DNA from: Rhizobium sp. WYJ-E13
GTDB taxonomy: Bacteria > Pseudomonadota > Alphaproteobacteria > Rhizobiales > Rhizobiaceae
Length of the DNA stretch: 64,000 nucleotides
Direction: 5' to 3'
Assembly (NCBI RefSeq): GCF_018987265.1
Contig: NZ_CP076854.1
Location: 310,001-374,000, forward strand
Both the position numbers and the translations under genes were made by a program. This document shows, piece after piece, positions 49,691 through 64,000 of the stretch. A model generated the notes under the pieces. It had not been told where the DNA came from, did not search any database, and saw only the letters and a program-made list of their open reading frames with translations. Position 1 is the first letter of the stretch. Each line of letters opens with the position of its first letter.

Positions 49691-50128
49691 ATGTCTGATA
49701 CGAAAAGCGCGCTGTTCATCGATATCCCGGTCGAACTGCGAGAAGTGAAGTCAGTCCACAGCATCGGAGGGCTGGAGTTCGAGGGCGACTTGCCCGCGGC
49801 TCTATTCCATCTCCAGTTGATCACGACGGACATCGCGAATTGGAAAGCGGCTTCCGAAGTGATCGTGGTGTTCCACACCAACGCCGGCCACGTCACGCTT
49901 GGCGATGAGGCCTACAATGCGTCGCGGAACATCGCCACTGGCAACCCCTACAAAAAGCTGGTCGCGGACCTCATCGACATCGGCGTCAAGGTCGAGCTTT
50001 GCGGAGCGACTGCGAAGGTAAACGGATGGGGCAACGCCGATCTTCTGCCTCGCATCAAGATCAATCTCGACGCCATGGCGCGGACGATCCAGCTCGTCCA
50101 GCAAGGATTCGTCAAGATCACCGAGTGA
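49691..50128 (+). CDS. DsrE-family protein
   Basis: A 145-residue DsrE/F-like protein. Features are the alpha/beta order FHLQLITTDIANWKAASEVI, VVFHTNAGHVTLGDEAYN and a central LVADLIDIGVKVELCGATAK with the conserved Cys. Some members transfer sulfur; others have no sulfur role. GAAGG precedes the ATG. It closes the MBL/hydrolase run before the truncated SDR. Confidence 0.8.
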   Translation: MSDTKSALFIDIPVELREVKSVHSIGGLEFEGDLPAALFHLQLITTDIANWKAASEVIVVFHTNAGHVTLGDEAYNASRNIATGNPYKKLVADLIDIGVKVELCGATAKVNGWGNADLLPRIKINLDAMARTIQLVQQGFVKITE

Positions 50129-50177
50129 CCTCCTGGTTCCCAGTCCTGCCAAGAATCGAACGCCCAACGAGAGTGCC

Positions 50178-50357
50178 ATGCTTCAACTGCAATTTGGGTT
50201 CCATTCAACGGCCTCGGATGTCTTGAAGGGCATTGATCTCCATGGAGAGACAATGATCGTGACCGGAGGCGCAAGCGGCATCGGCACCGAGACGACGGCA
50301 GCTCTTGCCGCCGCCGGTGCGTCCGTTGTCATCGCCGCGCGTCGTCCGGAAGTGTGA
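50178..50357 (+). pseudogene. SDR gene truncated by a MITE-like element
   Basis: The frame MLQLQFGFHSTASDVLKGID, LHGETMIVTGGASGIGTETT, then AALAAAGASVVIAARRPEV is the N-terminal cofactor-binding part of a short-chain dehydrogenase similar to the one at 41958. It stops at a TGA formed by the first bases of the 187-bp element. No SDR continuation was found beyond the element, so more than a simple insertion has occurred. Confidence 0.82.
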
Positions 50358-50539
50358 ATCAGCACCGAAGGTTGACCCTCTGCCGCTTTTACGTAAGGCA
50401 TCGATTTACAAATACGAAATGGAATCGAGAGGGGGTCACGATCAGGACCGATGATGACTCCGCCCGGATCGAGATTTGCCCGCAAATTCATGCACGTGCT
50501 GCCTTTTGGCAGAGGGTCAACCTTCGGTGCTGATTCACA
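50353..50539. mobile_element. MITE-like element with perfect 32-bp terminal inverted repeats
   Basis: The first and last 32 bp are exact inverted copies (start TGTGAATCAGCACCGAAGGT, end in its complement ATTCACA at 50539), around a 123-bp non-coding centre. The TGTG end followed by GCACCGAAGGTTGACCC resembles ends I associate with IS21-family elements in rhizobia. I see no clear flanking duplication. It is probably an internally deleted, non-autonomous IS. Confidence 0.8.
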
Positions 50540-50721
50540 GACAGGCTAAACCTTTCTGCGCGCAGGGGAAAACTGGACGGCCAGAACCCAGCTCAATGCG
50601 AAGGCATCCGCCTTTCCAGACTCGAGCTGGCCAGACGGCAGCCTTGACCGGCCTTGGAGCAACCCATGCTGGCGAGAGTTCAACTAACGCTTGTTTTGGT
50701 AGTGCATGATCTCCGCCGTCT
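50540..50721. other. Short gap without a gene
   Basis: No frame, repeat or SDR continuation seen. Confidence 0.4.
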
Positions 50722-51801
50722 TCACTCCCGTGCCGTCTCAGGCAGCCATGAGTGATAAAGCGGGTGATTGACGGAAATTGGCATGGCGGTCGGCTTGCTG
50801 GTGCGGTGTGAGTGATAGGCGGCTGTTACGAGTTCGAGCGAGCGGCGGGCATCCTCAAGCGTTACTGGCGGTTTAGTACCATCCATGATTGCCTTGTGGA
50901 AAAGCTGGAATTGGCGGGTATAACCGTCCTCCTCGTCCTTATATTCGGCGAGTGCATCATCGACGCGGGCCTGATGCTCTTCTGTGCCCGCGACGAAGCT
51001 CCATGGATCACGGCCCATCGTGTAAGGATCCAGGACGCTTTCCGCCACCAGATCGGAAAAGCAGAAGCGCAGGCGCGAGATTTCCTTGCGGGAACCGAGC
51101 GTCATGGACAGAGCCGCTAGCGAACCATTTTCCATCTTCACCGAAAGCGTCGCTGTGTCCTCGACCTCAATTGGGTTCACCAGCGTCGTACCATGGCTGA
51201 ACACTTCGGCGCAGGCGCCATGGACGTAGTTCAGCATGTCATGGGCGTGGATGGCATGACCGAGTAGCCCGCCGCCGAGTTCGCTCTTCCATTTGCCGCG
51301 CCACGGAACGGCATAGTAGTCCGGCCCGCGCCACCAGTGGGTCTCGATGGTAGTGAGAAACGGGTGCCCGGCCAGGCCGCGTTCGATAAGATATTTCAAC
51401 TTCTGCAATCCGGTACCGTAGCGGTACTGGAAGATCGGCATCAGAAAACGGTCGGTGCTGCCCACGATCTTGATCATTGCATCGACATCGGCGATCGAGC
51501 CATAAAGTGGCTTCTCACAGATGATATGCTTGCCGGCCTCAATGCCGCGCTTGGAGAGTTCGAAATGTGAATCCGGCGGCGTGCAGATGTCGATGATGTC
51601 GAGATCATCGCGTGCAAACAGAGTGTCCACATCCTGAGTATATTCGGCGATCTTGTATTCTTCGCAAAGCGCGCGCCCGCGGTCCCCGTCAAGCGAGCAA
51701 AGGACCGCGACCTCGAACAGCTCAGGGTTCCAGCCAAAGCCGGACAGATGCCTCGCGGCAATGCCGGCCCCAATGACGCCGACGCGTAATCTCTTGGTCA
51801 T
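50722..51801 (-). CDS. Gfo/Idh/MocA-family oxidoreductase (second of a pair)
   Basis: A 359-residue NAD(P)-dependent dehydrogenase. The N-terminal Rossmann domain is LRVGVIGAGIAARHLSGFGW and the conserved EKP is HIICEKPLYG. A C-terminal domain follows with GGGLLGHAIHAHDMLNYVHG. The ATG at 51801 follows the preceding stop by one base; an ORF extension upstream is not translated sense. Gfo/Idh enzymes oxidise sugars or polyols. It is the last gene of the CUT1 sugar-importer operon, so the imported compound is the likely substrate. Confidence 0.9.
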   Translation of the reverse strand: MTKRLRVGVIGAGIAARHLSGFGWNPELFEVAVLCSLDGDRGRALCEEYKIAEYTQDVDTLFARDDLDIIDICTPPDSHFELSKRGIEAGKHIICEKPLYGSIADVDAMIKIVGSTDRFLMPIFQYRYGTGLQKLKYLIERGLAGHPFLTTIETHWWRGPDYYAVPWRGKWKSELGGGLLGHAIHAHDMLNYVHGACAEVFSHGTTLVNPIEVEDTATLSVKMENGSLAALSMTLGSRKEISRLRFCFSDLVAESVLDPYTMGRDPWSFVAGTEEHQARVDDALAEYKDEEDGYTRQFQLFHKAIMDGTKPPVTLEDARRSLELVTAAYHSHRTSKPTAMPISVNHPLYHSWLPETARE

Positions 51802-51802
51802 C

Positions 51803-52822
51803 TCAATATTCTCCCTGGACGCCAATACGGGCGGCATTGGTCTGTGCCTCAAGCGAAAGGCGACAGACTTCAAAGACATGGGCCTGCGACATCGCGGTTT
51901 CGGTGCGATTGGCGACGTCATCGACAAAGGCGCGGAAATATATGAGCTCCTCGTCGCTGCAATCGATGTAGCGGTTTTCCGTACCATTGATGAGGAAGAG
52001 GTGATCCTTGCCCGGTCGGCCGGAAATGTCGATATACTTGCGCAGCTCGATATAGCCCTCCGTACCGAGGATGATCAGCCGTCCGTCGCCCCACGTACCG
52101 AGCCCTTCCGGGGTGAGCCAATCGACTCGGACATAGCCGGTTGCCTTGTCGGAACGCAAAAGAATGTCGCCAAAATCCTGGAAGGCCGGCTTTCCCGGCA
52201 TCGTGAAATTGCCGATGCTGCTGGCAACGATCTCGCCCGCTTTCGAGCCGGTGTAGAACAGAAACTGGTCGATCTGGTGGGAAGCGATATCCACGATGAT
52301 GCCGCCGAAGCGTTTGGGGTCGAAAAACCAATCCGGTCGTGAGGCAAGCTGAAGCTTATGGGGGCCGGTGCCGATAGTCTGGATGACCCGGCCAACCGCG
52401 CCCTCCTGCACCAGTTTGCCCGCCTTCACCGCCGAGCGAACGCTGTGACGTTCGGTGAAGCATATGGAAAAGATCTTTCCGGTTTCCTCTACCGTCTTGC
52501 GGACCTCTGCGAGCTGCTCAAAGCTTGTAACTCCTGGCTTGTCCAGCATCACATCCTTCCCGGCCTTCATTGCACGGACGGCCAAGCCCGCGCGGTCCGC
52601 CGGTACGGCGGAGATGCAGACGACGTCGATCTTCGGATCATCAAAGATCCGGTCGCGGTCGATCTTCGGTACGTCGGGATAATTCTTCTCCATCGCCTCG
52701 AGAACAGCGGGGGCAGTGGTTTCGGGGCAATAGCCGACAAATTCAGCGCCCGTCGCCAAAAGCCCCTTCACATGATCGAAAATATGGCCGTGGTCGAGAC
52801 CGACGGCTGCAAACCTCAACAT
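51803..52822 (-). CDS. Gfo/Idh/MocA-family oxidoreductase (first of a pair)
   Basis: A 339-residue dehydrogenase distinct from its neighbour. LRFAAVGLDHGHIFDHVKGL begins a Rossmann fold variant, with DVMLDKPGVTSFEQLAEV carrying the conserved KP, and GGIIVDIASHQIDQFLFYTG the catalytic His region. It is translationally coupled to the next gene (1 nt apart). With two enzymes of this family one may oxidise and the other isomerise or reduce, as in inositol or anhydro-sugar pathways; the substrate is not known. Confidence 0.9.
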   Translation of the reverse strand: MLRFAAVGLDHGHIFDHVKGLLATGAEFVGYCPETTAPAVLEAMEKNYPDVPKIDRDRIFDDPKIDVVCISAVPADRAGLAVRAMKAGKDVMLDKPGVTSFEQLAEVRKTVEETGKIFSICFTERHSVRSAVKAGKLVQEGAVGRVIQTIGTGPHKLQLASRPDWFFDPKRFGGIIVDIASHQIDQFLFYTGSKAGEIVASSIGNFTMPGKPAFQDFGDILLRSDKATGYVRVDWLTPEGLGTWGDGRLIILGTEGYIELRKYIDISGRPGKDHLFLINGTENRYIDCSDEELIYFRAFVDDVANRTETAMSQAHVFEVCRLSLEAQTNAARIGVQGEY

Positions 52823-52883
52823 TGCTCGCTCCTTATTGCTAGCCGGCCAGAACCGGCCGTCGTCATGCTTGTCTCACCGGCGA

Positions 52884-53957
52884 TCATGCCTCCTGGACAT
52901 GCTTCGGCAGCGTCTTGCGCCCAGCCTGGTCGAAGAAATGCGCCTTCTCGAGATCGAAGAACACGTCCACGCTGTCGGTGACCGCCGGCTGCCCTTCAAG
53001 CAGAATCGTCAGCGGCTGCCCATCGCCGAGGCTGGCGTACACAACAGTCTGCCCGCCGAGGCTCTCCACCAGATCCACCGCAGCGGTGCCAAGTTTGATC
53101 CTGCTGGTGCCGGCAACTATCGAGAGGTGCTCGGGTCGGATGCCAAAGGTAACCGGCAACCTTTCGAAATTCGGATGAGGTAACGAGACCTCGTTAATCC
53201 TGACGCCGTTCGAGGAAGCCGCGGCCGGTAGGAAATTCATCTTTGGTGAGCCAATAAAACCAGCAACGAACCGATTGCCGGGCGCGTTGTAGAGATCGAG
53301 CGGAGAGCCAACCTGCTCAATGCGCCCGTTGTTGAGCACCACGATCTTGTGCGCCATGGTCATCGCCTCGACCTGATCGTGGGTCACGTAGATCGTCGTG
53401 TTGCCGAGCCGCTTGTGCAGCTTGGCAATCTCGACGCGCATTTGGACACGCAGCTCGGCGTCCAGGTTGGAGAGCGGCTCATCGAACAGGAAGAGTTTCG
53501 GCTCGCGCACGATCGCCCTGCCAATTGCCACGCGCTGGCGTTGACCACCGGAAAGCTGTCGTGGTTTGCGAGCGAGGAGCGGCTCGATCTGAAGGATTTC
53601 CGCCGCCTCCTGGACACGTCGCTTGATCTCCTCCTTCGACATCTTCGCGGTCTCCAGCCCGAAGGCGAGGTTCTTATGGACCGTCATGTGCGGATAGAGC
53701 GCATAGGACTGGAAAACCATGGCGATACCGCGCTCGTAAGGCGCGATATGATTGACCGTTCGGCCGTCGATCATGAGGTCGCCGCCAGTGATCTCCTCGA
53801 GTCCGGCGACCATTCTCAAAAGAGTCGATTTGCCAGAGCCTGACGGGCCAACAAAGACAACGAACTCTCCGGGGTCGATTTGAAGATCGACGCCGTGAAC
53901 CACCTGTAGTTCGCCATAGGATTTAGTAACGTTTCGCAACTCAACGGTGGATGACAC
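52884..53957 (-). CDS. CUT1 ABC transporter ATPase (UgpC/MsmK-like)
   Basis: A 357-residue ATPase: Walker [21 protein letters not shown], signature [20 protein letters not shown], Walker [13 protein letters not shown], and a C-terminal TOBE/OB domain that binds regulators. This is the sugar-importer type. GTG at 53957 is chosen because GGGAGG lies 6 nt upstream; TTG at 53987 is less likely. It lies between the permeases and the two dehydrogenases. Confidence 0.92.
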
Positions 53958-54011
53958 GGATCGCCTCCCGGCTGTGCTGGAGTTCAATTTTCGCGCGTGA
54001 AAGAAGTCCCA

Positions 54012-54875
54012 TCATCGCTTCATCCCCGTGGTTGCGATCCCCTCGATAAGCAGCCGCTGGAACAGCAGGAAGAAGCCGAAGACCGGCATCAGGGACAGCA
54101 CGGACATGGCGAACAGTCCGCCGAAATTCGACACGCCGCTCGAATCCACGAAGGTCCTGAGTCCGAGCATTGCCGTGTATTGCGGCATGTCGCTCAGATA
54201 GATGAGCGGTCCCAAAAAATCGTCCCAGGTCCAGATAAAGGTGAAGATCGAGGCGGTGGCCAGCACCGGCAGCGACAGCGGCATGATCACCCTCCAGTAA
54301 ACCCGCCAAGGCGAGCAGCCGTCGATCATCGCAGCCTCATCGAGCTCCTTAGGAAGGCCGCGAAAGAACTGCACCATCAGGAAGATGAAGAAGGCATCGA
54401 CGGCGAGGAACTTCGGAACAACCAGCGGCAGAAAGGTGTTGACCCAGCCAAGCTCGCGAAACAGCACATATTGCGGGATCAGGGTGACGTGATAGGGGAG
54501 CATCAGCGTCATCAGCATCAGCGCGAAGCAGATCCGGCGCCCCCGAAATTCCAGCCGCGAGAACGCGAAAGCGGCAAGCGAACAGCTAAATACATTGCCA
54601 ACGACGCAAAGTATCGCGATCAAGAAGGAATTGCTGAAGAACCGGCCAAAGCTCACCGGCAGCCCGTTCCAGCCTTCGACATAAGAGGTAAGGCTAAAGC
54701 TCGACGGAGTGAGGCTCGTCGAGATGAAGATTTCGTTTTCAGGTCTGAATGAGGCCGACAGCATCCACAACAGCGGATAGATCATAGCGATCGAGGCGCC
54801 GATGAGCAGCGCGTGAGTGACCATGCCGGCAACACGCGAACGCATCGTGGCTTCGGAGAGCGAGAGCTTATTCAT
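54012..54875 (-). CDS. CUT1 ABC transporter permease (MalG-like)
   Basis: A 287-residue inner-membrane permease with six helices and the EAA loop ELDEAAMIDGCSPWRVYWRV followed by IMPLSLPVLATASIFTFIWT. It is the second permease subunit. The start MNKLSLSEATM overlaps the first permease by 8 nt. Coupled translation with its partner is typical of the CUT1 family. Confidence 0.9.
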   Translation of the reverse strand: MNKLSLSEATMRSRVAGMVTHALLIGASIAMIYPLLWMLSASFRPENEIFISTSLTPSSFSLTSYVEGWNGLPVSFGRFFSNSFLIAILCVVGNVFSCSLAAFAFSRLEFRGRRICFALMLMTLMLPYHVTLIPQYVLFRELGWVNTFLPLVVPKFLAVDAFFIFLMVQFFRGLPKELDEAAMIDGCSPWRVYWRVIMPLSLPVLATASIFTFIWTWDDFLGPLIYLSDMPQYTAMLGLRTFVDSSGVSNFGGLFAMSVLSLMPVFGFFLLFQRLLIEGIATTGMKR

Positions 54876-55815
54876 CGTAGTGCACCCAATAGCGGCTGGT
54901 GAGGAAGGCGAAGGCCGTAAACAGCGCGATGATGACCAGCAGCACCCAAGCGAGTGCCGAGGCATAGCCCATGCGGAAATAGCCGAAGGCTTCCTGATAG
55001 AGATAAAGCGTATAGAACAGCAGCGAATTGACCGGATTGCCCGATCCGTTCGAGATGATAAAGGCAGGTGTAAATGTCTTGAACGCATCGATCGTCTGGA
55101 TGATGGCGTTGAAGAAGATCACGGGAGTTAGCAGAGGTACGGTAATGCGCCTGAACTGCCGCCAGCGCCCGGCGCCGTCGACCCGCGCCGCCTCGTAAAC
55201 ATCGGCCGGTATCTGCCGAAGGCCGGCGAGGAAGACGATCATCGGCGAACCGAACTGCCAGACCGCCAGGACAATTAGCGTCCACAGCGAGTAGTTGGGG
55301 TTCGAGATCCAACTCGGACCTTCGATGCCGAACTGAGCGAGGAGGTGGTTTACCAGCCCGTTGCCAGCGAAAAGCTGTCGCCAGAGAACGGCAATCGCAA
55401 CGCTCGCGCCGAGAAGCGAGGGCAGGTAAAACAGCGCCCGGTAAAGCGGCAGACCGCGGATGCCGCGATTGAGCAGCATGGCCACGGCGAGCGCAAAAGC
55501 GAGTTTCAGCGGCACGGAGAAGAGGACATAGACAAAGGTTATCCTGATGGAAATCATGAACTTGGGGTCTGCGGTAAACATGCGCACGTAGTTGGCAGGG
55601 CCTACCCAATCGGGCGCGGTCAGAAGGTCGAAATCCGTAAAGGACAGGTAAAGCGACCACAGGATCGGGCCGAGCGACAGGCAAAGAAAGCCTATCGCCC
55701 AGGGCAACAAGAAGAGGTAGGCCGCGCGCTGCGTAGAGGAATAGCGCTTAGGCCCTTTTGCCCGCACCATTCCCCCGCGTGACGCGGCCGCTTCGGGCGA
55801 CTTGATAACCGTCAT
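54868..55815 (-). CDS. CUT1 ABC transporter permease (MalF-like)
   Basis: A 315-residue permease with six helices (AAYLFLLPWAIGFLCLSLGP; VIFFNAIIQTIDAFKTFTPA) and the EAA loop DVYEAARVDGAGRWRQFRRI. It pairs with the MalG-like protein. The start ATG at 55815 is 3 nt from the binding-protein stop. Confidence 0.9.
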   Translation of the reverse strand: MTVIKSPEAAASRGGMVRAKGPKRYSSTQRAAYLFLLPWAIGFLCLSLGPILWSLYLSFTDFDLLTAPDWVGPANYVRMFTADPKFMISIRITFVYVLFSVPLKLAFALAVAMLLNRGIRGLPLYRALFYLPSLLGASVAIAVLWRQLFAGNGLVNHLLAQFGIEGPSWISNPNYSLWTLIVLAVWQFGSPMIVFLAGLRQIPADVYEAARVDGAGRWRQFRRITVPLLTPVIFFNAIIQTIDAFKTFTPAFIISNGSGNPVNSLLFYTLYLYQEAFGYFRMGYASALAWVLLVIIALFTAFAFLTSRYWVHYDE

Positions 55816-55817
55816 GA

Positions 55818-57107
55818 TCAGCGCCGGCTCAAAAGTTCGGTTGCCTGCTCGACAAGCATCGGCCCGGCGTTCTCCGGCTTTTCCATTCCGAAGGCGACTT
55901 GCTGACTGATATTGGCAAGCACCGATTGACTAACCTCGCCGGCGGCCGTCGGCGGAGAAGGGGGGATCGGGCCAAGGATATCGCCGAGCCCCGACACGTA
56001 TTCCAACCCCGCACGTTCGAGCGGCGACAGTGTTGGGGCAAGGGCTTCGCGCACGGGCTCCGAACAGGGAATGCCACGTTCGGTGCCGAGAAGCTTTGCA
56101 GCTTCTAGGTCGTTTGCAAAGAAGCTGAGAAACTGGGCGGCTTGGCTTTTCGCGGCCGACGAGTTCGCAATCGAGAAAAACATTGACGGTTTGCGGTACT
56201 GGCCGCCCGTTGCGCCAGTAGAGATTAACGGGTAAGGAGCGAGCGCCAGCGGATCCTGCATCAGGGACTGATAGGCAACCAGAAGATTTGAATTGTCTGG
56301 TTGAAGCGCGGCCTTACCCGACACAATCATGGTCGATTCCATCGGGCCTGTTTCCAGCGCATTATCTTCGGCCGTAACGCAAACGCCGGCCTCACGCAGC
56401 TCCGACCACAAGATAAACCATTCCGTGGCATCGTCGGCACCGAAGGCAAGTTGACCATCGGCGGTGTAAAGCGCCTTCTTGCGTTGGCGCAGCCAGTTTT
56501 CGAGCATCTGCTCATTACCCGAAGCGTCCATGATGACGCGGATCCCATTTGGCAGGCCCGACTGCTTGAAGACGTCGGCATATTCAAAGAGCTGGTCATA
56601 GGTGAAACCACCCACGGGCAGTTTAATGCCGGCTCTATCGAAAGCTGCGGTGTTGACGATGGTCGCGACGGAGTTTGCTCCGAGGCTGATACCATAGAGC
56701 TTTCCGCTAACTTTGCCCCCCTCAATTTGATCTTTATCGAAGCCGGCGAGGTTCAATTCCTTGCCGATAAATTCGTCAAGCGGCGCGATTGCGTTACGGG
56801 CGGCATATTCGGCGATATAACGGTAGTCCATTTGCACGACGTCTGGCGCGTTGCCGCCAGCGATCTGTGTGGCAAGTTTCGTCCAGTAATCGTTCCAGGC
56901 GAGAAATTCGTTTTGGACTGTGATTCCGTTTTGAGCGGCAAAAAGCCCGCTTGCCTTTCCGGTCTTATCCGCGCGAGCTTGCCCGCCCCAGAAGATTAGA
57001 CGAAGCCTTTCTGCGGCGGCGTAAGCGCTGGTACCGTTAAGGGTGGCGGCAAGGGCTCCCAGGCCCGCGGTCTCCAAGAAGCTGCGACGACCGATAAGAT
57101 TATTCAT
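55818..57107 (-). CDS. CUT1 ABC transporter substrate-binding protein
   Basis: A 429-residue extracellular solute-binding protein (SBP_bac_1). It has a twin-arginine-like leader (GRRSFLETAGLGALAATLNG) and then ERLRLIFWGGQARADKT, NDYWTKLATQIAGGNAPDVV and MENWLRQRKKALY-type core. It captures the sugar or polyol in the periplasm for the two permeases. It is the first gene of the operon and lies just downstream of lysR, with the candidate LysR box upstream. Confidence 0.92.
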   Translation of the reverse strand: MNNLIGRRSFLETAGLGALAATLNGTSAYAAAERLRLIFWGGQARADKTGKASGLFAAQNGITVQNEFLAWNDYWTKLATQIAGGNAPDVVQMDYRYIAEYAARNAIAPLDEFIGKELNLAGFDKDQIEGGKVSGKLYGISLGANSVATIVNTAAFDRAGIKLPVGGFTYDQLFEYADVFKQSGLPNGIRVIMDASGNEQMLENWLRQRKKALYTADGQLAFGADDATEWFILWSELREAGVCVTAEDNALETGPMESTMIVSGKAALQPDNSNLLVAYQSLMQDPLALAPYPLISTGATGGQYRKPSMFFSIANSSAAKSQAAQFLSFFANDLEAAKLLGTERGIPCSEPVREALAPTLSPLERAGLEYVSGLGDILGPIPPSPPTAAGEVSQSVLANISQQVAFGMEKPENAGPMLVEQATELLSRR

Positions 57108-57198
57108 ATGCTCCTCCTTTAAGGCCGAACTCTCCTCAGTCGGCGTTTAAAGAGTATCAATCCCCAAGACATATGAAAATTACGATTTATCCGGAGTA

Positions 57199-57217
57199 AT
57201 ATAGATTTTCTCTATAT
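57199..57217. promoter_or_regulatory. LysR-type box upstream of the sugar-importer operon
   Basis: ATATAGA-TTTTC-TCTATAT is a perfect inverted repeat with 7-bp arms; the inner T-N11-A (57202-57214) fits the LysR consensus. It overlaps the last codon of the lysR gene and lies about 90 bp upstream of the binding-protein ATG, a normal activation position. Confidence 0.65.
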
Positions 57218-58156
57218 CTCCGTTTCATCTAGTGCCATTGCCGCGAGCTTCGAGGCACCGAGAGCCCGGATTTCCTCTAGGAGGGCGGCAAGCCGAGGGT
57301 CGTGTTCGGTACTGTGGGTGGCGTAGATGCCGACCCTTGCCGACCGCTCCGGCTGATCATCCCGCAACGTGACCTGATGGAGCCCTTTCTCCGCCAGTTC
57401 TTTCGCGACTACGGAGGTGAACCGAAGGACCCCCTCGCTCTTCAAAATATACTCTACGCAGACCGACATGGAATTTGATGAGAAGCTATTTGGCTCCATG
57501 CGAAAATGAGGACTGCTTATCGTGTCTCGATCCCGCAGGAACAATCGCTCGTAGCGTTCTTCGGGCGAACCAACGACCACCATGGGGTAGGCTCGGATGT
57601 CCTCAAAGCCTTTAGGCTCATTGAGCAACGGATGCCCTTTTCGCACGAAATAACCCTGCCTGGCGTTGCCGAACGGCACGAAACGGGTGTTGAACTCCGC
57701 GGCCATGCCAGGTGTCTCATGTCCGAGGAACATTGAAATTTCGCCAGCGAGGAGCTGATCCATGCAACGCAGCTGATTACCCACGCTCACATGCACAGGC
57801 GCATCGGGATAACTACGGCGGCGCTCAAATACCCAGTCGCGGAGGAAGAGGATCCACCAAGTATAACCGACGCCGATACTGATTGTTAGTTCGGAATGTA
57901 TGCGCTGCCGATCGATCTGGTCGATTGTGTTGTCATAGAGCTTGCGCATCACGCGCGCATTTTGGAAGAGGGTCACGCCGTAAGGTGTAAGGACCGCGCC
58001 GCGTGCCGTGCGCTTGAAGAGCGTAACACCAAGACTCTCTTCAAGCTTCCTGATATTGAAAGTAAGAGTTGGTTGCGTCACGCTTAGCAATTGCGCCGCG
58101 CGACTGAATGAGCCAGATTCTGCTATTGCTAAAAACTGCTGCAATATCTTGTCCAT
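57212..58156 (-). CDS. LysR-family transcriptional regulator
   Basis: A 314-residue LTTR: N-terminal HTH (FLAIAESGSFSRAAQLLSVT, QPTLTFNIRKLEESLGVTLF) and a type 2 periplasmic-binding-like effector domain (about 90-300). GGAGG precedes ATG 58156; the longer ORF adds 17 residues without support. It should activate the downstream sugar-importer operon in response to substrate or a derived metabolite. Confidence 0.92.
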   Translation of the reverse strand: MDKILQQFLAIAESGSFSRAAQLLSVTQPTLTFNIRKLEESLGVTLFKRTARGAVLTPYGVTLFQNARVMRKLYDNTIDQIDRQRIHSELTISIGVGYTWWILFLRDWVFERRRSYPDAPVHVSVGNQLRCMDQLLAGEISMFLGHETPGMAAEFNTRFVPFGNARQGYFVRKGHPLLNEPKGFEDIRAYPMVVVGSPEERYERLFLRDRDTISSPHFRMEPNSFSSNSMSVCVEYILKSEGVLRFTSVVAKELAEKGLHQVTLRDDQPERSARVGIYATHSTEHDPRLAALLEEIRALGASKLAAMALDETEI

Positions 58157-58992
58157 TAAGCCTCCGCCGCTGGAGCTCGCAATAACGCTCCTCCTCGTCC
58201 CACCCATAATTCCACGAATGATTTAGCTAGTGCCCGTCCATAAACGCCTGTTTTTCTCCGATTTTGAAAGGGTGTTTGCCGGCTGCCATCGTTTCTTGGG
58301 ACGAGTGATGGCAGAAGACCGCGCAGATTATGGCCCGAAGAGCGATCTGGCGGCAATGGGGTCATGGGATATCGGCCGACGCTCGCTGAGCTGCTTTGAA
58401 CGCTACCGGATCAGGAGCGTAAGGTCGGCCTGAGGCGGGCAAGGAGGGCGAGATTGTAAGCGACCACCGAGGACCAGACACGTGCGGCCTCGTTCCATTT
58501 GCCCGTCTGGCATGTGGGGTGCGGGTGGCTTTGAGGTGACCTTAAGCCATGACTGTGGCGTGCTATGTCCTACCGCTTATTTAATAGGCAGGTGGCATTC
58601 GTAGATGCTTATGATTGTAAGCCTGCGTTTTCTGCGGCGCCGGCTCGTTTAGGCGGATACAGTAGCAGAGCAGCTGTTGGTCGACTTCTCTTCAAGATCG
58701 CTGAGATCAGAATACTCGCCGTGGCATGGTCGCTACGCTCGATCCTGTTCATTCAATAGCCTCGGGATCGGTATCGGGACCTCTTCCGATAGAGGATTTG
58801 AGGTAAAAAACTGTCCTCTCTGATCTCCATGGTCGATAGGCCTCTGATGCGACCACGTTGTTGCTGTCAGAAGCTCGCTAGCAATTCACTTTGGGACGAC
58901 CACTCGTGTGATGACAGGCACCTCAAATATCTTGACAAAGGAAATCATATTTACGAATTGATGTGCGTCACTAAATTTTTTGAGGGTTTTTT
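58157..58992. other. 836-bp region with a transposase scar and no intact gene
   Basis: Besides the remnant at 58411-58530, no convincing frame is seen. The AT-rich end (58920-58992) includes a TTGACA at 58932 and should hold the promoter of the FecCD-type operon. Confidence 0.45.
58411..58530 (-). pseudogene. Transposase C-terminal remnant
   Basis: The reverse strand reads CQTGKWNEAARVWSSVVAYN, LALLARLRPTLRS and a stop. This resembles the C-terminal end of transposases (W.eaa..w.s.vaYNL.llaRl), but I cannot name the family with confidence. No catalytic part or terminal repeat was found. Confidence 0.45.
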
Positions 58993-60078
58993 ATGCTTTT
59001 CAGACGGAACGAGTTCGCGATCACAGTTGCATTGGTTTTCACTCAGCCACTCGCCGCAACCGCCGATCCGATCACCATCATCGATCATGAAAAGCGCACC
59101 GTCACACTGCCAAAACCGGTCGAGCGGATCGCCTCGATCCCAATTCCGATGGCCTCGACCATCATCGCCATGGACGGCGGAACGTCAAAGCTGGTCGGCA
59201 TGAACCCAACCGCCAAGTCGGCGATCGTCGAGGGCGTGCTCGGCAAGATCTTCCCCGAGGCGAAGGACATTCCCTCCGACATTACCGCGCCGAACTTCAT
59301 TCCGAACGTCGAGGAACTGGCGGCCACCAATCCCGAACTGGTAATCCAGTGGGCCGATCGCGGCCCGGACCTGGTCGACCCGATCGTCAATGCCGGCCTG
59401 ACCGCGCTTTTGATCTCCTACGGCTCGGAAGAGAAGACCAAGCAGTACCAGGCGATGGTGGCGACCGCGATGGGCAAGCCCGAGCGCGCGCAGATGATCA
59501 ACGGCTGGCGCGACCAGGTGGCCGCCGAAATGGCCGCCAAGTCGAAGGATATTCCGGCCGAGAAGAAGCCGCGCATCCTTTATCTTGGCCGCGCGCTGGA
59601 AAGCCTGACCGCCTCCGGCGACAAGGGCAACTACGCCGCCTTCTACGTCAATCTGGCCGGCGCCGTCTCCGTCTCGGCCAATCTTGAGGGCCAGGGCACG
59701 ACGATCAGCCCCGAACAGATCGCCGAATGGAATCCCGACGTCATTCTCCTCAACAGTTTCGAGGCCAAGCTCGGCCTTGAGCGGATCTATGACGACCCGA
59801 TCCTGTCGCTGACCAAGGCCGCCCAGGACAAGCGCGTCTACAAGATGCCGCTCGGCGGCTATCGCTGGGACCCGCCGAACCAGGAAAGCCCGCTGACCTG
59901 GATGTGGCTTGCCAATCTCATGCATCCCGACATCTTTCAGTACGACCTGCGCGGCGAGATGAAAAAGGCCTACAAGACGCTCTACGACTACGACCTGACC
60001 GACGAGGACATCGACGGCATCCTGTGGGTCGGCATGCAGGGCGACGCCACCGACTACGCCCAGTTCAAGGCGAAGTAA
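58993..60078 (+). CDS. Periplasmic binding protein of a FecCD-type ABC importer
   Basis: A 361-residue type III binding protein (Peripla_BP_2/BtuF-like). A signal peptide ends near residue 24 (LAATADP), followed by ITIIDHEKRTVTLPKPVERI, the fold's opening strand, LVGMNPTAKSAIVEGVLGKI, and the linker helix toward GGYRWDPPNQESPLTWMWLA. Family members bind iron-siderophores, haem, cobalamin or molybdate. GAGGG precedes the start. It begins the operon with permease, ATPase and two unusual proteins. Confidence 0.9.
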   Translation: MLFRRNEFAITVALVFTQPLAATADPITIIDHEKRTVTLPKPVERIASIPIPMASTIIAMDGGTSKLVGMNPTAKSAIVEGVLGKIFPEAKDIPSDITAPNFIPNVEELAATNPELVIQWADRGPDLVDPIVNAGLTALLISYGSEEKTKQYQAMVATAMGKPERAQMINGWRDQVAAEMAAKSKDIPAEKKPRILYLGRALESLTASGDKGNYAAFYVNLAGAVSVSANLEGQGTTISPEQIAEWNPDVILLNSFEAKLGLERIYDDPILSLTKAAQDKRVYKMPLGGYRWDPPNQESPLTWMWLANLMHPDIFQYDLRGEMKKAYKTLYDYDLTDEDIDGILWVGMQGDATDYAQFKAK

Positions 60079-60079
60079 G

Positions 60080-61132
60080 ATGGCGATGGCGGCGATGGAA
60101 AGCGGGCGCCGAAGCCTGATCGGCCTCAGGATCGGCGCGTTCGGGCTGATGGCGCTGGCGCTGATCGCCGCCATGCTGTTTTCAATAGGCGCCGGGCGCT
60201 TTTCCGTCGACGTGCCACGGATCGGCGAGATCCTGCTGGCGGCGGTCCTCAACCCGGATGCCGCGCCGACCCAGATGGACGAGCGCATCGTGCTGCTGGT
60301 GCGTCTGCCGCGCGTGCTTCTGGCGGCGCTGTCGGGTGCGGCGCTCGCCGTCGGCGGCGCGGCGCTGCAGGGCGTGTTCCGCAATCCGCTGGTCTCGCCG
60401 CAGGTGCTCGGCATCAGCCAGGGTGCCGCCTTCGGCGGTGCGCTCGCCATCCTGTTCGGCTATTCCGGCTTCGTCCTGCTCGGCATGGCCTTCCTGCTCG
60501 GCCTGTCGGCGCTGTTCATGGTCGGGCTCCTCGCCCGCATCAACGGCCGCACTGAGGTGATCACGGTGATCCTCGCCGGCATGATCGTCGGCGCGTTGTT
60601 CGCGGCCCTGGTGTCCGTCGTGCAGTTCGTCGCCGACCCCAACACCTCTCTTCCCGCCATCGTCTACTGGCTGATGGGCTCGTTTTCGACCGCAACCTGG
60701 CCACGCCTGTGGCTCGCCGTGCCGGGCATGGGCCTTGGCCTCCTCGCCGTCTGGCTGTTGCGCTACCGGCTCAACCTGCTGGCGCTCGAGGAGCAGGAGG
60801 CGCGGTCGCTCGGCGTCAATCCGGATCGCGAGCGCTGGTATATCTTCGTCGCCATTTCGCTGATGACCGGAACCTCGGTGGCGGTAGCCGGCATCATCGG
60901 CTGGATCGGGCTCGTCGTGCCGCATGCCGCGCGCATCCTGGTCGGCGAGGACCACCGCGCGCTGATCCCGGCCTCGGCCCTGCTCGGCGCCGCCTATCTG
61001 ACGCTGATCGACACCATGGCGCGCACCCTGACGGCGGCCGAAATCCCGCTCGGCGTGCTGACGGCGCTGGTCGGCGCGCCGGTGTTCGGTTACCTGCTGC
61101 GCCGCCATTTCAAGGAGACCAACCGCACATGA
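60080..61132 (+). CDS. FecCD-family ABC permease
   Basis: A 350-residue permease with about ten helices: LPRVLLAALSGAALAVGGAA, LQGVFRNPLVSPQVLGISQG (family signature), VIVGALFAALVSVVQFVADP, and the C-terminal GWIGLVVPHAARILVGEDHR. It is a homodimeric type II importer of the BtuC/FhuB/MolB class. The start lies 2 nt after the binding-protein stop; the ATPase start overlaps its stop (ATGA). Confidence 0.93.
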   Translation: MAMAAMESGRRSLIGLRIGAFGLMALALIAAMLFSIGAGRFSVDVPRIGEILLAAVLNPDAAPTQMDERIVLLVRLPRVLLAALSGAALAVGGAALQGVFRNPLVSPQVLGISQGAAFGGALAILFGYSGFVLLGMAFLLGLSALFMVGLLARINGRTEVITVILAGMIVGALFAALVSVVQFVADPNTSLPAIVYWLMGSFSTATWPRLWLAVPGMGLGLLAVWLLRYRLNLLALEEQEARSLGVNPDRERWYIFVAISLMTGTSVAVAGIIGWIGLVVPHAARILVGEDHRALIPASALLGAAYLTLIDTMARTLTAAEIPLGVLTALVGAPVFGYLLRRHFKETNRT

Positions 61133-61887
61133 TCGGTCTTGAAGACGCCTCCGTCTCCTTCGGCGCCCGCACGCTGTTTTCCGGCATCAGTTTCACCGTG
61201 CCGGTCGACCGTTCGATGGCGGTGCTCGGCCCCAATGGTCGCGGCAAGACCACGCTTCTGCGCGCCCTGCTCGGTTTCCAGCCGCTGGCCAAGGGTCGTC
61301 GCAGCGCGCCAAAAATCTCCGGCTATGTGCCGCAGCACGGTGCCTCGCAGGCCAAGCTGTCCGGGCTCGACGTCGTCGTCATGGGTCGGGCGGCCAGGCT
61401 TGGCCTGTTCGGCCAGCCCTCGGCGGACGACCGCGCGGCGGCCGAGGAGGCGCTGGTCGAGGTCGGCGCCTGCCATCTCGCCGAGCTTCGCTACGACCGC
61501 ATGTCCGGCGGCCAGAGGCAGATGGTGCTGATCGCCCGCGCCATCGCCACCGGTTCGCCGGCTCTGATCTTCGACGAGCCGACCTCGGCGCTCGATCTCG
61601 GCAACCAGTCACGCACGCTGGAACTCCTCAATTCGCTCCGGCTTCGTCGCGACAAGGCGATCCTGTTCACCACCCACGACCCAAACCATGCGCTGGCGGC
61701 GGCCGACGACGTGCTGCTGATGATGCCGGGCGGGCGCGAAATCCACGGCACCGTGGCCGATATGATCGAGCCCGACAAACTCTCCGAGCTCTACGGCGTG
61801 GCGATGCGCTGGGTGGAGGTAACCGGACCGACGGGCGAGACGCGCCGGGCAATCCTGCCGGCTTTCGCCGGAATAGAGGCAGCATGA
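61129..61887 (+). CDS. FecE-like ABC importer ATPase
   Basis: A 252-residue ATPase: Walker A GPNGRGKTTLLRALLGFQPL, signature YDRMSGGQRQMVLIARAIAT, Walker B ALIFDEPTSALDLGNQSRTL and the H-loop TTHDPNHAL. A longer upstream frame (from 60709) lies inside the permease gene and is not its start; ATG at 61129 in the ATGA overlap is. It powers the permease and overlaps the next gene by 4 nt. Confidence 0.93.
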   Translation: MIGLEDASVSFGARTLFSGISFTVPVDRSMAVLGPNGRGKTTLLRALLGFQPLAKGRRSAPKISGYVPQHGASQAKLSGLDVVVMGRAARLGLFGQPSADDRAAAEEALVEVGACHLAELRYDRMSGGQRQMVLIARAIATGSPALIFDEPTSALDLGNQSRTLELLNSLRLRRDKAILFTTHDPNHALAAADDVLLMMPGGREIHGTVADMIEPDKLSELYGVAMRWVEVTGPTGETRRAILPAFAGIEAA

Positions 61888-63194
61888 GCGCGATCTATCT
61901 GAAATCGACCTATGATGCCCCGTCCGAGGCCGTGAAGGCCGCCGCGGCAGAGGGTCTGGTGACGATCGTCGAGCAGCCGGCGCTGACCGCCGACATGCTT
62001 CTGGCCCACAAAGGCCTGATCACCGGCAATCAGTTCGACCAGAACGCCATGATGCTGATGCGCGAGGCGCTCGCCGCGTTCCTCGATGCCGGCGGCCGCT
62101 GGTTCTTCAACGGCCACATGGTACGGCCGCTGGTCGACGGCATGAGCCAGTACCGGCCGATCGAGGCGCCGAATCGCGCCGATTTCGACCTTTCCTCGGT
62201 CAACGCCCATCCGCTGTTTTCCGGCATCGAGCTTGCGAAGATCGAGACCAACAAGGGTGTGGCTGGCTTTTACGGCCGGGGCTGCAATCCGCCGCCCGAA
62301 GGCGCGGTGGCGGTCAACGGTCTCGGCGCGGCGCAGGTGCCGGTCGACTGGGTCTGGGCGCGGCCAAGGGGCGGGAGGATCTTTTCCCATGCCGGCAATG
62401 ATCTCGGCTCGATGGGGCTCGAATGGAACCTGTCGGGCGAGCTGACGCGGCGGATGATCGACTGGACGCTTGGCGGCCCCTGCCTTGACCCCTGGCCCTC
62501 GGCACCCTCGTCGCCGGCGGCCGAGCTGCCGCTTGCCGCGCCCGAAACCTATGGCGGCATGCGGATGTCGAGCCGAACGGGACGGCGCGTCGTCGCGCCA
62601 TCGTCCGGCACCTATTACAACATCCGCAGCCTTGAAGGACCGCGCTACACCGAGATCTTCGACGTCATCTGCGCGCCCGAGCAGCTCGCCGACATCCTGC
62701 GTCCCGACGACATTCTCTGGGTTCCGTGCCGCACACCAGCGCAGCGCATGATCGCCCAGAAATCCGTGCTCGCGCGCCATCTGGCCGCCGGGGGCACGGT
62801 GGTGGCGCTCGGCGAGAGCCGTTCCGATCTTTGGCTGCCGCATGTCGACTTCACCGGCACGCCGACGAATTGGTGGTGGTGGCTCGATCCGGCCGCCGAT
62901 CTCGGCGTGCGCGTCAGCGAGGCCGCGGCCAGCCATCCGCTGATGGCCGGCATCGGCGACAGGCAGGCGACCTGGCACCTGCATGGCTGGTTTGTCCCGC
63001 CGGACGGCGCCACGGTGCTGGCCCGCGACGGTGAAGGCCGGGCGATCCTCTACGAGGACAAGGTCTCGACCAAGGGAACGATGATCCTCTCCTCGCTCGA
63101 TCCGATGTTCCACCACGGCTCGCACTTCATGCGGGCAACGACCCTTTTCCTCGACAGCTTCGTTCCCAACCTGAGAGCCTTCGCAGATGTCTAA
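61884..63194 (+). CDS. Uncharacterised protein with two related GATase-like halves (436 aa)
   Basis: No named family was recognised. Residues about 1-205 and 265-436 look like a tandem duplication: FLDAGGRWFFNGH (67-78) aligns with HLAAGGTVVALGE (299-311), HPLFSGIEL (109) with HPLMAGIGD (351), and GRIFSHAGNDLG (164) with GTMILSSLDPMF (398). The order resembles ThuA/class I glutamine amidotransferase-like folds, which often lack enzymatic residues. No signal peptide is visible, so it should be cytoplasmic. It is coupled to the ATPase on one side (ATGA) and the FmdE-like gene on the other (8-nt overlap), so it almost certainly acts on the imported compound. Confidence 0.75.
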   Translation: MSAIYLKSTYDAPSEAVKAAAAEGLVTIVEQPALTADMLLAHKGLITGNQFDQNAMMLMREALAAFLDAGGRWFFNGHMVRPLVDGMSQYRPIEAPNRADFDLSSVNAHPLFSGIELAKIETNKGVAGFYGRGCNPPPEGAVAVNGLGAAQVPVDWVWARPRGGRIFSHAGNDLGSMGLEWNLSGELTRRMIDWTLGGPCLDPWPSAPSSPAAELPLAAPETYGGMRMSSRTGRRVVAPSSGTYYNIRSLEGPRYTEIFDVICAPEQLADILRPDDILWVPCRTPAQRMIAQKSVLARHLAAGGTVVALGESRSDLWLPHVDFTGTPTNWWWWLDPAADLGVRVSEAAASHPLMAGIGDRQATWHLHGWFVPPDGATVLARDGEGRAILYEDKVSTKGTMILSSLDPMFHHGSHFMRATTLFLDSFVPNLRAFADV

Positions 63195-63696
63195 TGCCAT
63201 TACCGTGCTCGACAACGGCCACCCGATCAGCTTCACCTTCGACGGCATCAACGCCTATCACGGCGGCGGTTTTCCCGGCGGCGTGGCGCATGCGCTGAAG
63301 GCGATGCAGGCGGCGTTTCGGCTACTGTCCGACACGCCGCTGGAACGGCGCGAAGTGACAATTGTCACCGCGTTTTCCGGTCCCGGCGGACGCGACGCGC
63401 TGGAAATGGTGACCCGGGCGCTGACCGAGGGACGGCTGACCGTCGACAAGTCGATCGGCGGCAAGGACATCATCACCGATCCGCCCGGACCTTACGTGTT
63501 CCGCTTCAGCTATCGCGGTCGCACCGCTGAAGCCGTAATCAAGCCAGGGCACGTGAAGGAAGAGTTCGTCACGCTGGGCGCTAAGAAGGACAAGACGCCC
63601 GACGAGGTCGCCCGCCACGAGGAGTTGAAGGCGGAAATGGCTTATCGTCTGCTGCCTATCCCTGCACACGACGTGTATGGCGTCAGGACCTTTTGA
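63187..63696 (+). CDS. FmdE-like protein lacking the family cysteines (169 aa)
   Basis: The N-terminal half reads DGINAYHGGGFPGGVAHALK, matching the FmdE-domain opening (fHGHlCPG...GyRa) but with Gly and Phe in place of the second His and the Cys (HGGGFPG, 25-31). FSGPGGRDALEMVTRALTEG (63-) similarly matches the family's DaCGvDAiq..tg.T.GkGnl segment, again without Cys. FmdE proteins are found with formylmethanofuran dehydrogenase and also with molybdate/tungstate genes. It overlaps the preceding gene by 8 nt and ends the operon. The loss of the metal-binding cysteines suggests it binds a different ligand. Confidence 0.65.
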   Translation: MSNAITVLDNGHPISFTFDGINAYHGGGFPGGVAHALKAMQAAFRLLSDTPLERREVTIVTAFSGPGGRDALEMVTRALTEGRLTVDKSIGGKDIITDPPGPYVFRFSYRGRTAEAVIKPGHVKEEFVTLGAKKDKTPDEVARHEELKAEMAYRLLPIPAHDVYGVRTF

Positions 63697-64000
63697 TCCG
63701 GACCGGACCGAGGATCCAACGTATCGTGTGTGAATAACTGCGGTCAAAGTTTGTAAGCTTTTCCTGCATGCTGTTCCACGTTGTCCGCGAGCAGCGGGCT
63801 TTCCGTCAGGGCCTTGATCAATCGGTCGAAGGGCATAGCTACTCGACCACGGCCTTGGCGCAGTTGGGGCTTCCTCGTACTGAGCATTCTATGAAGGCGA
63901 CTCTTCTGAGGCATGCAATCTGAGACTGAGGCAGGTTTCGAGAAACACGTTAGCATACAGGCGCTTTGCTTGCCTCAGATCCACTTCGGGGACCCTCGAA
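63697..64000. other. Right edge of the window without a convincing gene
   Basis: A 70-codon reverse-strand frame (63744-63956, ending FDRLIKALTESPLLADNVEQ) is open, but has no ribosome site or recognised domain. It could be a remnant of a longer gene to the right. Confidence 0.35.

What the first reader, a model, noticed from the sequence alone, without database searches (positions are those of the whole stretch)
58993..63696. Candidate new system: FecCD-type importer fused in one operon to a two-half GATase-like protein and an FmdE-like protein
Five genes overlap or abut (2-nt gap, then overlaps of 4, 4 and 8 nt). The importer class handles siderophores, cobalamin, haem or molybdate. The two downstream proteins match no system I know, and their tight coupling argues for joint work on the imported metal or metal complex. 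FmdE relatives near molybdate or tungstate genes, and the MolBCA precedent for a FecCD-type molybdate importer, make an oxyanion or metal complex plausible.
Basis: partly seen in the sequence, partly recalled or inferred. Interest (0 to 1): 0.75.

Follow-up and report, generated by a model that had tools for sequence, protein, structure and literature searches.

The report
Iron-starvation importer with two unnamed partners
A soil Rhizobium carries a compact operon that probably imports a small iron complex when iron is scarce, with two unnamed, conserved proteins that may free the iron inside the cell; relatives link the same importer to enzymes that break carbon-phosphorus bonds.

Summary
The five-gene operon is real: binding protein, FecCD permease, ATPase, P4 (two GATase-like halves), P5 (FmdE-like fold). 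P4 and P5 have no usable Pfam or NCBIfam match yet are conserved: of 64 P4 loci, 53 have FecCD beside P4 and 51 of those P5. P4a and P4b are separate genes elsewhere and fused in both orders; P4/P5 also accompany Dpp/Nik-type and NMT1-type importers. The metal is most likely iron, not molybdate: the RirA-type box TGA-N9-TCA lies 60 bp before the first start codon and in 22 of 34 de-duplicated upstreams (91 of 938 controls; best of 1,344 dyads). The genome encodes RirA; a Paenibacillus relative has an 18/19 Fur box; the Aliivibrio salmonicida relative is reported iron-responsive (PMC4324432, PMC2627896; passages). Sister operons join this importer and P5 to PhnGHIJKL with PhnJ's cysteines kept. 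Best reading: a RirA-controlled importer of a small iron chelate whose cytoplasmic partners P4-P5 release the iron or process the ligand. Iron import is well supported; the partners' chemistry is inferred; the ligand is unknown.

The parts
58933..58947 (+). RirA-type iron-responsive operator TGA-N9-TCA, overlapping a TTGACA hexamer (58932-58937), 60 bp before the first start codon
   Evidence: 22 of 34 upstreams against 91 of 938 controls; only spacing 9 stands out; position; IRO definition seen in passages of PMC6386902 and PMC8822346
58993..60078 (+). periplasmic substrate-binding protein (Peripla_BP_2); N-terminal signal-like stretch by reading
   Evidence: PF01497 2e-17; nearest solved chain 4ovk, E 5e-54; MolA HI_1472 (E 2e-10) and H. 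pylori nickel/iron chains weaker
60080..61132 (+). FecCD-type permease
   Evidence: PF01032 2e-87; nearest solved: MolB HI1471, 282 bits, next HmuU 164.5 bits
61129..61887 (+). ABC ATPase
   Evidence: PF00005 4.7e-20
61884..63194 (+). P4: fused two-half GATase-like protein without a Pfam, NCBIfam or PHROGs match; first half about residues 1-200, second half about 236-436
   Evidence: no family; halves are separate genes in relatives; model, pLDDT 91.4; fold; conserved residues
61884..62483 (+). P4a half (conserved D52-Q53, N76-G77-H78, 125-136 GVAGFYGRG.NP, D155-W156, H169, G171, N172)
62589..63191 (+). P4b half (conserved P281-C282-R283, G310-E311, T328-N329, W331-W333, W364-G368 WHLHG, L405-P407 and H410-G412)
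63187..63696 (+). P5: FmdE-like fold, no curated family match; HGGGFPGG where three FmdE relatives have GHxCP
   Evidence: pLDDT 95.3; 2glz, TM 0.63/0.70

Best explanation
A RirA-repressed ABC importer for a small iron complex. When iron is plentiful RirA sits on the box over the TTGACA hexamer and keeps the operon off (inferred from the box and the presence of rirA). When iron is scarce the binding protein takes an iron chelate from the periplasm and FecCD/ATPase pump it in. In the cytoplasm P4 (a pair of GATase-like halves fused into one chain, probably without amidotransferase chemistry) and P5 (FmdE-like) receive the complex and free the iron or process the ligand. No TonB receptor gene lies in the operon, so the chelate is probably small enough for a porin or uses a receptor encoded elsewhere. 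Shown: operon, families, folds, conserved company, iron-type operator. Inferred: RirA binding, substrate, P4-P5 chemistry. Unknown: the ligand.
For: Regulation: TGA-N9-TCA is the best of 1,344 gapped dyads in 34 de-duplicated upstreams (22 of 34; 91 of 938 controls; P 1e-14, next best 4e-6), and only spacing 9 is enriched (22; at most 4 at the other spacings from 4 to 15). RirA in the same genome: NF008886, 294.8 bits, cut-off 193. The box also stands before the remote P4-carrying FecCD operons L027, L139, L140, L141, L142 (5 of 5) and in 7 of 13 further upstreams (two of the 7 are one shared divergent site, and some are near-copies of loci already). Other phyla have Fur-type boxes: Paenibacillus 18/19, Sulfurovum MAG 15/19 (shuffle P 0.000 and 0.001). 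A. salmonicida pVSAL320, whose only listed ABC transporter is SBP-FecCD-ATPase followed by a P4 relative: SBP VSAL_p320_27 up 2.4-fold (p 0.01), ATPase VSAL_p320_29 up 1.7-fold (p 0.07) in iron depletion (PMC4324432, table passage); called iron-dependent, probably Fur-regulated and perhaps non-siderophore (PMC2627896, passage). Partners: P4 and/or P5 follow four kinds of importer, and the P4 halves are fused in both orders, so they act together, presumably on what comes in.
Against: 12 of 34 upstreams lack an exact box, among them the R. leguminosarum-type group. RirA binds without this motif too: 5 of 10 RirA peaks in S. fredii had it (PMC8822346, passage), so the box is suggestive, not proof. 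No Fur-type box stood out (9-11 of 19) for Methylosinus, E. coli ED1a, Paracoccaceae, Azospirillum and the Rhodospirillales MAG; Klebsiella is weak (13/19, P 0.055); A. salmonicida's best is 13/19 at P 0.13. In the main text of the A. salmonicida fur-mutant paper the term p320 does not occur (its supplement was not seen). Nickel-like company in some relatives (HupE/UreJ_2, NikA-like SBP, HypD/HypE). Nothing here shows that P4 or P5 bind iron.
Confidence: 0.62

Rival explanations
1. MolBCA-type importer of molybdate or tungstate, with P4-P5 handling the oxyanion.
For: MolB HI1471 is the nearest solved permease by a wide margin (282 against 164.5 bits); MolA HI_1472 is among the SBP hits (E 2e-10); P5 has the fold of a family named after the molybdenum formylmethanofuran dehydrogenase operon.
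Against: RirA/Fur-type boxes; iron response of the Aliivibrio relative; no Rfam riboswitch found in window 50000-64000; MolB-like permeases may merely be the nearest clade with a solved structure.
Confidence: 0.12
2. Nickel or cobalt complex importer (it would work like the FecCD-type NiuBDE of Helicobacter, recalled).
For: HupE/UreJ_2 protein (L075 by Pfam; L072 and L084 by sequence likeness, my reading) and NikA-like SBP in Dpp-type relatives; a P5-like gene directly beside hypE-hypD in L123; SBP resembles H. pylori chains named nickel/iron binding.
Against: Iron-type boxes in three phyla; no nickel-related gene was seen next to the window operon; L123's P5-like protein is only 22% identical to the window P5; the NikA-like SBPs score far below the NikA cut-off.
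Confidence: 0.12
3. A phosphonate- or other nutrient-import operon in which iron is incidental: LysR-controlled, with P4/P5 or C-P lyase as catabolic enzymes.
For: PhnGHIJKL follows the same importer and P5 in 12 loci (several near-identical); LysR genes beside such operons.
Against: The window operon has no phn genes beside it and the only PhnJ of the genome is elsewhere; TGA-N9-TCA also precedes phn-linked operons: L019, L077, L083, L125 (read), L127, Labrenzia, though not Klebsiella L082 nor the annotated A. vitis start; known phosphonate importers use other binding-protein families (recalled).
Confidence: 0.12

Closest known systems
FecCD-type siderophore/haem/cobalamin ABC importers (FhuBCD, FecBCDE, HmuTUV, BtuCDF)
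   Same: binding protein, FecCD permease, ATPase; iron-type operator
   Different: no TonB receptor gene in the operon; two unnamed partners instead of a known reductase or hydrolase
MolBCA (HI1470-1472), molybdate/tungstate importer
   Same: its permease is the nearest solved relative
   Different: iron-type operator here; SBP only remotely similar; no P4/P5 partner known there (recalled)
FmdE family PF02663 (2glz, 2gvi)
   Same: P5 fold and remote profile match
   Different: below Pfam's cut-off; GHxCP cysteine replaced (HGGGFP); sits with importers
Class I glutamine amidotransferase-like domains (GMP synthase subunit 2a9v, IFT52 N-domain 5fmr, GH42 trimerisation domain)
   Same: fold of the P4 halves (E 1e-4 to 4e-3)
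   Different: two halves as a pair; the one invariant Cys is not at the expected nucleophile place; own His/Asp/Trp motifs
C-P lyase core PhnGHIJKL
   Same: downstream of the same importer-P5 unit in sister operons; PhnJ cysteines kept
   Different: not in the window operon; no phnM annotated in those operons
Aliivibrio salmonicida pVSAL320 iron ABC transporter (VSAL_p320_27 and _29)
   Same: SBP-FecCD-ATPase followed by a P4 relative (halves swapped), iron-responsive in print
   Different: no P5 listed beside it; the passages seen name only the transporter

Membership tests
FecCD-type type II ABC importer | FecCD permease (PF01032) with Peripla_BP_2 SBP and ATPase in one operon | tested here: met
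   all over the curated cut-offs
FecCD-type type II ABC importer | uptake of a metal chelate or corrinoid | not testable with these tools
   needs ligand binding or uptake assay
RirA regulon | IRO box TGA-N9-TCA in the promoter | tested here: met
RirA regulon | rirA gene in the genome | tested here: met
   L146, NF008886 294.8 bits, cut-off 193
RirA regulon | RirA binds the site and represses under iron repletion | not testable with these tools
   no binding or expression data for this genome
MolBCA molybdate importer | closest permease MolB | tested here: met
   but by comparison with solved structures only
MolBCA molybdate importer | molybdate-type regulation or ligand | tested here: inconclusive
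   the operator found is iron-type; Mo-type operators were not searched for; ligand not testable
FmdE (PF02663) | score over Pfam's cut-off | tested here: not met
   window P5 no hit at E<=1, none in the own genome; 2 of 6 distant P5-like proteins scanned reach 18.2 and 18.7 bits against 22.9
FmdE (PF02663) | fold of 2glz/2gvi | tested here: met
   E 3.4e-6, TM 0.63/0.70; profile comparison of a six-member set with P5 prob 91.6, E 8e-7; the close set alone only prob 7
FmdE (PF02663) | GHxCP motif as in the three FmdE relatives aligned here | tested here: not met
   P5: H25, G26, P30, G31 invariant and F29 at least 90% in 37 rows, against GHxCP in 3 of 3
Class I GATase | GATase fold | tested here: met
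   (2a9v TMt 0.53-0.59, E 3e-3 to 4e-3)
Class I GATase | Cys-His-Glu triad | tested here: inconclusive
   only invariant Cys is C282 (34 of 34 rows with a letter), not after the strand that should carry the nucleophile; no residue superposition was run
C-P lyase | PhnGHIJKL genes in the window operon or next to it | tested here: not met
   the only PhnJ of the genome is at C1:4141503, the window is on C2

The most novel reading that the evidence does not exclude
P4 (paired pseudo-GATase halves) and P5 (an FmdE-like protein without the GHxCP cysteine) are a portable, iron-starvation-controlled cytoplasmic unit that dismantles imported iron complexes and is plugged into several kinds of ABC importer in bacteria and archaea; in one branch it is coupled to a second, iron-controlled C-P lyase core, so that ferric phosphonate chelates are imported and the ligand cut to yield iron and phosphate together.
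Probability: 0.25. Interest if true: 0.82.

Novelty: new variant of a known kind. Interest (0 to 1): 0.6.

Why it matters
How bacteria get iron out of imported complexes is known for few chelates (reductases, esterases; recalled). Two unnamed families that travel with iron-type importers across phyla are testable candidates for another way. The link of the same importer to a C-P lyase core under an iron-type box would connect iron and phosphonate use, which none of the listings seen describes, and would raise the question of natural phosphonate iron ligands. It also offers a role for genes that the plasmid records opened here call 'hypothetical protein'.

Tried and rejected
TALE/AvrBs3 matches of P5 in the solved-structure search (again; 10 bits in NCBIfam): rejected, sums of weak repeat matches, no stretch passes alone. 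Riboswitch control: only three sub-threshold Rfam matches in window 50000-64000, and no riboswitch before the operon in 8 loci (a cobalamin riboswitch in L023 lies about 6.5 kb behind the operon). PF02663 in the own genome: none. A dedicated TonB receptor: BLAST with two Methylosinus receptor genes hit only L036 and L085 of the 103 loci compared; a weak test for so diverse a family. Genome-wide scan for TTGACA-N7-TCATR in the own genome: 7 sites (2 forward, 5 reverse; reversed-pattern control 0). Besides the window site one lies before a TonB receptor plug protein, one in a coding-like stretch (my reading), one 272 bp before a urease-like ORF (my reading). By a simple count about 6-7 sites are expected by chance, so this adds no evidence. 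Neighbours of relatives such as catalase, PHB depolymerase, xanthine dehydrogenase-like, c-di-GMP enzyme and adenine deaminase were scanned and taken as unrelated. Literature: the searches gave no description of P4, P5 or the FecCD-PhnGHIJKL unit in the rows listed (titles, counts and starts of abstracts seen). Rodionov et al. 2006 on the RirA regulon is not held, so whether it lists this operon is not checked.

Rows dropped before counts: 80 upstreams were reduced to 34 by shared 16-mers; upstreams that were cut, or whose SBP alignment began after residue 60, were left out. The box-free second SBP of L036, which lies behind P5 in the same direction, is among the 34. The label of L022 was corrected by hand; that of L068 rests on a divergent importer seen. 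Of the 16 PF02663 matches in 15 of 200 genomes only three (L184, L189, L197) were used for the FmdE alignment; my script found no clean reading frame for the others.
Full report
OBSERVATION. The first gap is 1 nt, the overlaps 4, 4 and 8 nt. Pfam names the first three; P4 and P5 have no Pfam hit at E<=1; in NCBIfam P4 has none and P5 only a meaningless 10-bit one. The window lies in a 6.9-Mb genome, a Rhizobium by its nearest P4 (97%, Rhizobium sp. BK316).

CONSERVED COMPANY. One genome scan gave 64 P4 loci. FecCD lies within 4.5 kb on the same strand in 53, P5 in 51 of those, PhnJ in 5 of those; 4 have a Dpp/Nik-type importer (three confirmed by protein families, L068 likely); 7 are cut, damaged or have no importer I recognised (label of L022 corrected by hand). 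Profiles in evenly drawn genomes: P5 in 9 of 385 of the class, 6 of 398 of the phylum, 13 of 297 of the family (some P5 hits are weak and partial); P4 in 8 of 385 of the class, of which 5 lie beside FecCD, 2 beside an NMT1-type importer and 1 weak partial hit beside none of the proteins I searched with. In the genus, P4 matches 7 of 60 genomes, so the unit is patchy; with 28 plasmid records for P4 and 35 for P5 it looks mobile. I opened 11 of the 28 and 13 of the 35: an ABC importer lies beside the gene in 11 of 11 and 12 of 13.

P4. Its halves are separate genes (P4a, P4b) in the more distant loci (from L048 on, about 38-58% identity) and are fused in the opposite order in others (L005; A. 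salmonicida). Fusion in both orders is good evidence that the halves act together. The model (52-row alignment, pLDDT 91.4) has two GATase-like domains; Foldseek's best matches are IFT52's N-domain (E 2e-4), a GH42 enzyme and a GMP-synthase GATase subunit (E 3e-3). The only invariant Cys, C282, is not after the strand that should bear a nucleophile; the invariant motifs are rich in His, Asp and Trp. That P4 is no amidotransferase is inference.

P5. The model (37 rows, pLDDT 95.3) matches the FmdE-like proteins 2glz (E 3e-6, TM 0.63/0.70) and 2gvi; every other match has E of 1 or more among the 50 rows shown. A set of six distant members that includes the window P5 matches three FmdE relatives with probability 91.6, E 8e-7 over 146 columns; the close set alone does not (probability 7). 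Two of six distant P5-like proteins reach 18.2-18.7 bits with PF02663, under its cut-off of 22.9. The FmdE relatives carry GHxCP, P5 carries HGGGFPGG. P5 has the fold but is not a member by Pfam's rule.

WHICH METAL. I compared 34 de-duplicated 250-base upstreams of the SBP gene (from 80) with 938 control upstreams in the same loci. Of 1,344 gapped dyads TGA-N9-TCA is far the best: 22 of 34 against 91 of 938, P 1e-14, the next 4e-6. Only spacing 9 is enriched (22; at most 4 at the other spacings from 4 to 15). It is the iron-responsive operator of RirA (PMC6386902 and PMC8822346, passages); the second paper also says that only 5 of 10 RirA peaks in S. fredii carry it. The window copy is at 58933-58947 over a TTGACA hexamer. 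The genome has RirA. The remote P4-carrying FecCD operons L027, L139, L140, L141 and L142 have the box (5 of 5). 12 of 34 upstreams lack it, among them the R. leguminosarum-type group. Outside RirA's range the Paenibacillus P5-P4a-P4b-Dpp operon has an 18/19 Fur box and a Sulfurovum MAG 15/19; five other relatives gave 9-11 of 19 and Klebsiella 13 (further sites). In print, the A. salmonicida pVSAL320 transporter is induced by iron depletion (SBP 2.4-fold, ATPase 1.7-fold; PMC4324432, table passage) and called iron- and probably Fur-dependent (PMC2627896, passage); on that plasmid the only listed ABC transporter is SBP-FecCD-ATPase followed by a P4 relative (P4 profile E 5e-58). That the papers' locus tags are these genes is inferred from there being one such transporter. 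The main text of the fur-mutant paper does not name them.

OTHER IMPORTERS. P4 and/or P5 also accompany Dpp/Nik-type importers (L061, L072, L075, L080, L084), with a HupE/UreJ_2 protein in L075 and look-alikes in L072 and L084 (my reading); NMT1/NrtA-type importers (P5-like in L079, L086; P4a-P4b in L164, L166, L179); and in the haloarchaeon Natribaculum luteum an SBP_bac/BPD-type importer annotated as iron permease, with P4a and P4b between SBP and permease. What is common is the partners, not the pump.

C-P LYASE BRANCH. In 12 loci (several near-identical) the unit SBP-FecCD-ATPase-P5 runs into phnG-H-I-J-K-L as far as the locus reaches: Martelella, Rhizobium and Peteryoungia relatives, two unnamed Rhizobiaceae genomes, Proteus and Klebsiella plasmids; a Labrenzia and an A. 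vitis plasmid show it too. PhnJ keeps its four Cys and the glycine-rich YGWG-GG stretch where full length. In Rhizobium sp. CG5 (L017) and A. vitis the window-type operon lies directly beside the phn-linked one, and in Martelella and Labrenzia P4 stands in the phn-linked cluster. The iron-type box precedes several of these operons: L019, L077, L083 and L125 (read), L127, Labrenzia SBP and P4; not Klebsiella L082, nor the annotated A. vitis start. This suggests phosphonate-type iron ligands in that branch; it is not shown for the window.

MECHANISM. Shown: operon, folds, conserved company, iron-type operator, a published iron response of one relative. Inferred: RirA represses here; the SBP-FecCD-ATPase unit imports a small iron complex; P4 and P5, whose N-termini show no signal sequence to my reading, act on it in the cytoplasm. 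MolBCA-type and Ni/Co import remain rivals.

VERDICT. A real, conserved pair of partners of iron-type importers, undescribed as far as my searches went: a new variant of a known kind.

Noticed in passing
L077, L078, L082, L083, L125, L127, L176, L177: A second, divergent C-P lyase core (phnGHIJKL, no phnM annotated) in one operon with an iron-type FecCD importer and P5, on plasmids of Rhizobiales and of Proteus/Klebsiella; in Labrenzia the unit is the main cargo of a 22.6-kb plasmid.
   Followed up: partly
   Followed up: no
L072:9283-10293: A DUF364/DUF4213 ('putative heavy-metal chelation') gene follows P4b in a Sulfurovum MAG.
   Followed up: no
L072, L075, L084: HupE/UreJ_2 family membrane protein (L075 by Pfam, the others by likeness) between a Dpp/Nik-type importer and P4a; its role beside iron-type regulation is unexplained.
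   Followed up: partly
L079:11995-15430; L117:8484-9650: Two different P5-like genes frame an NMT1/NrtA-type importer on E. coli plasmid pECOED, and stand in tandem in L117.
   Followed up: no
window 58224-58480: Remnant of a repeated element (about 90-94% identical copies on Sinorhizobium/Rhizobium plasmids, some under an ISNCY transposase annotation) just upstream of the operon.
   Followed up: partly
window 54012-58207, minus strand: Sugar-type ABC importer genes (two permeases and a binding protein, by reading) and a LysR regulator next to the operon; probably unrelated.
   Followed up: no
L087:1728-6060; L178:3427-7599: A second FecCD importer with a fused P4 paralogue (profile E 2e-55 and 6e-58) close to the P4 or P4-P5 genes.
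   Followed up: partly
L082:15825-18495: Microcin B17 processing genes near the phn-linked importer on a Klebsiella plasmid (annotation).
   Followed up: no
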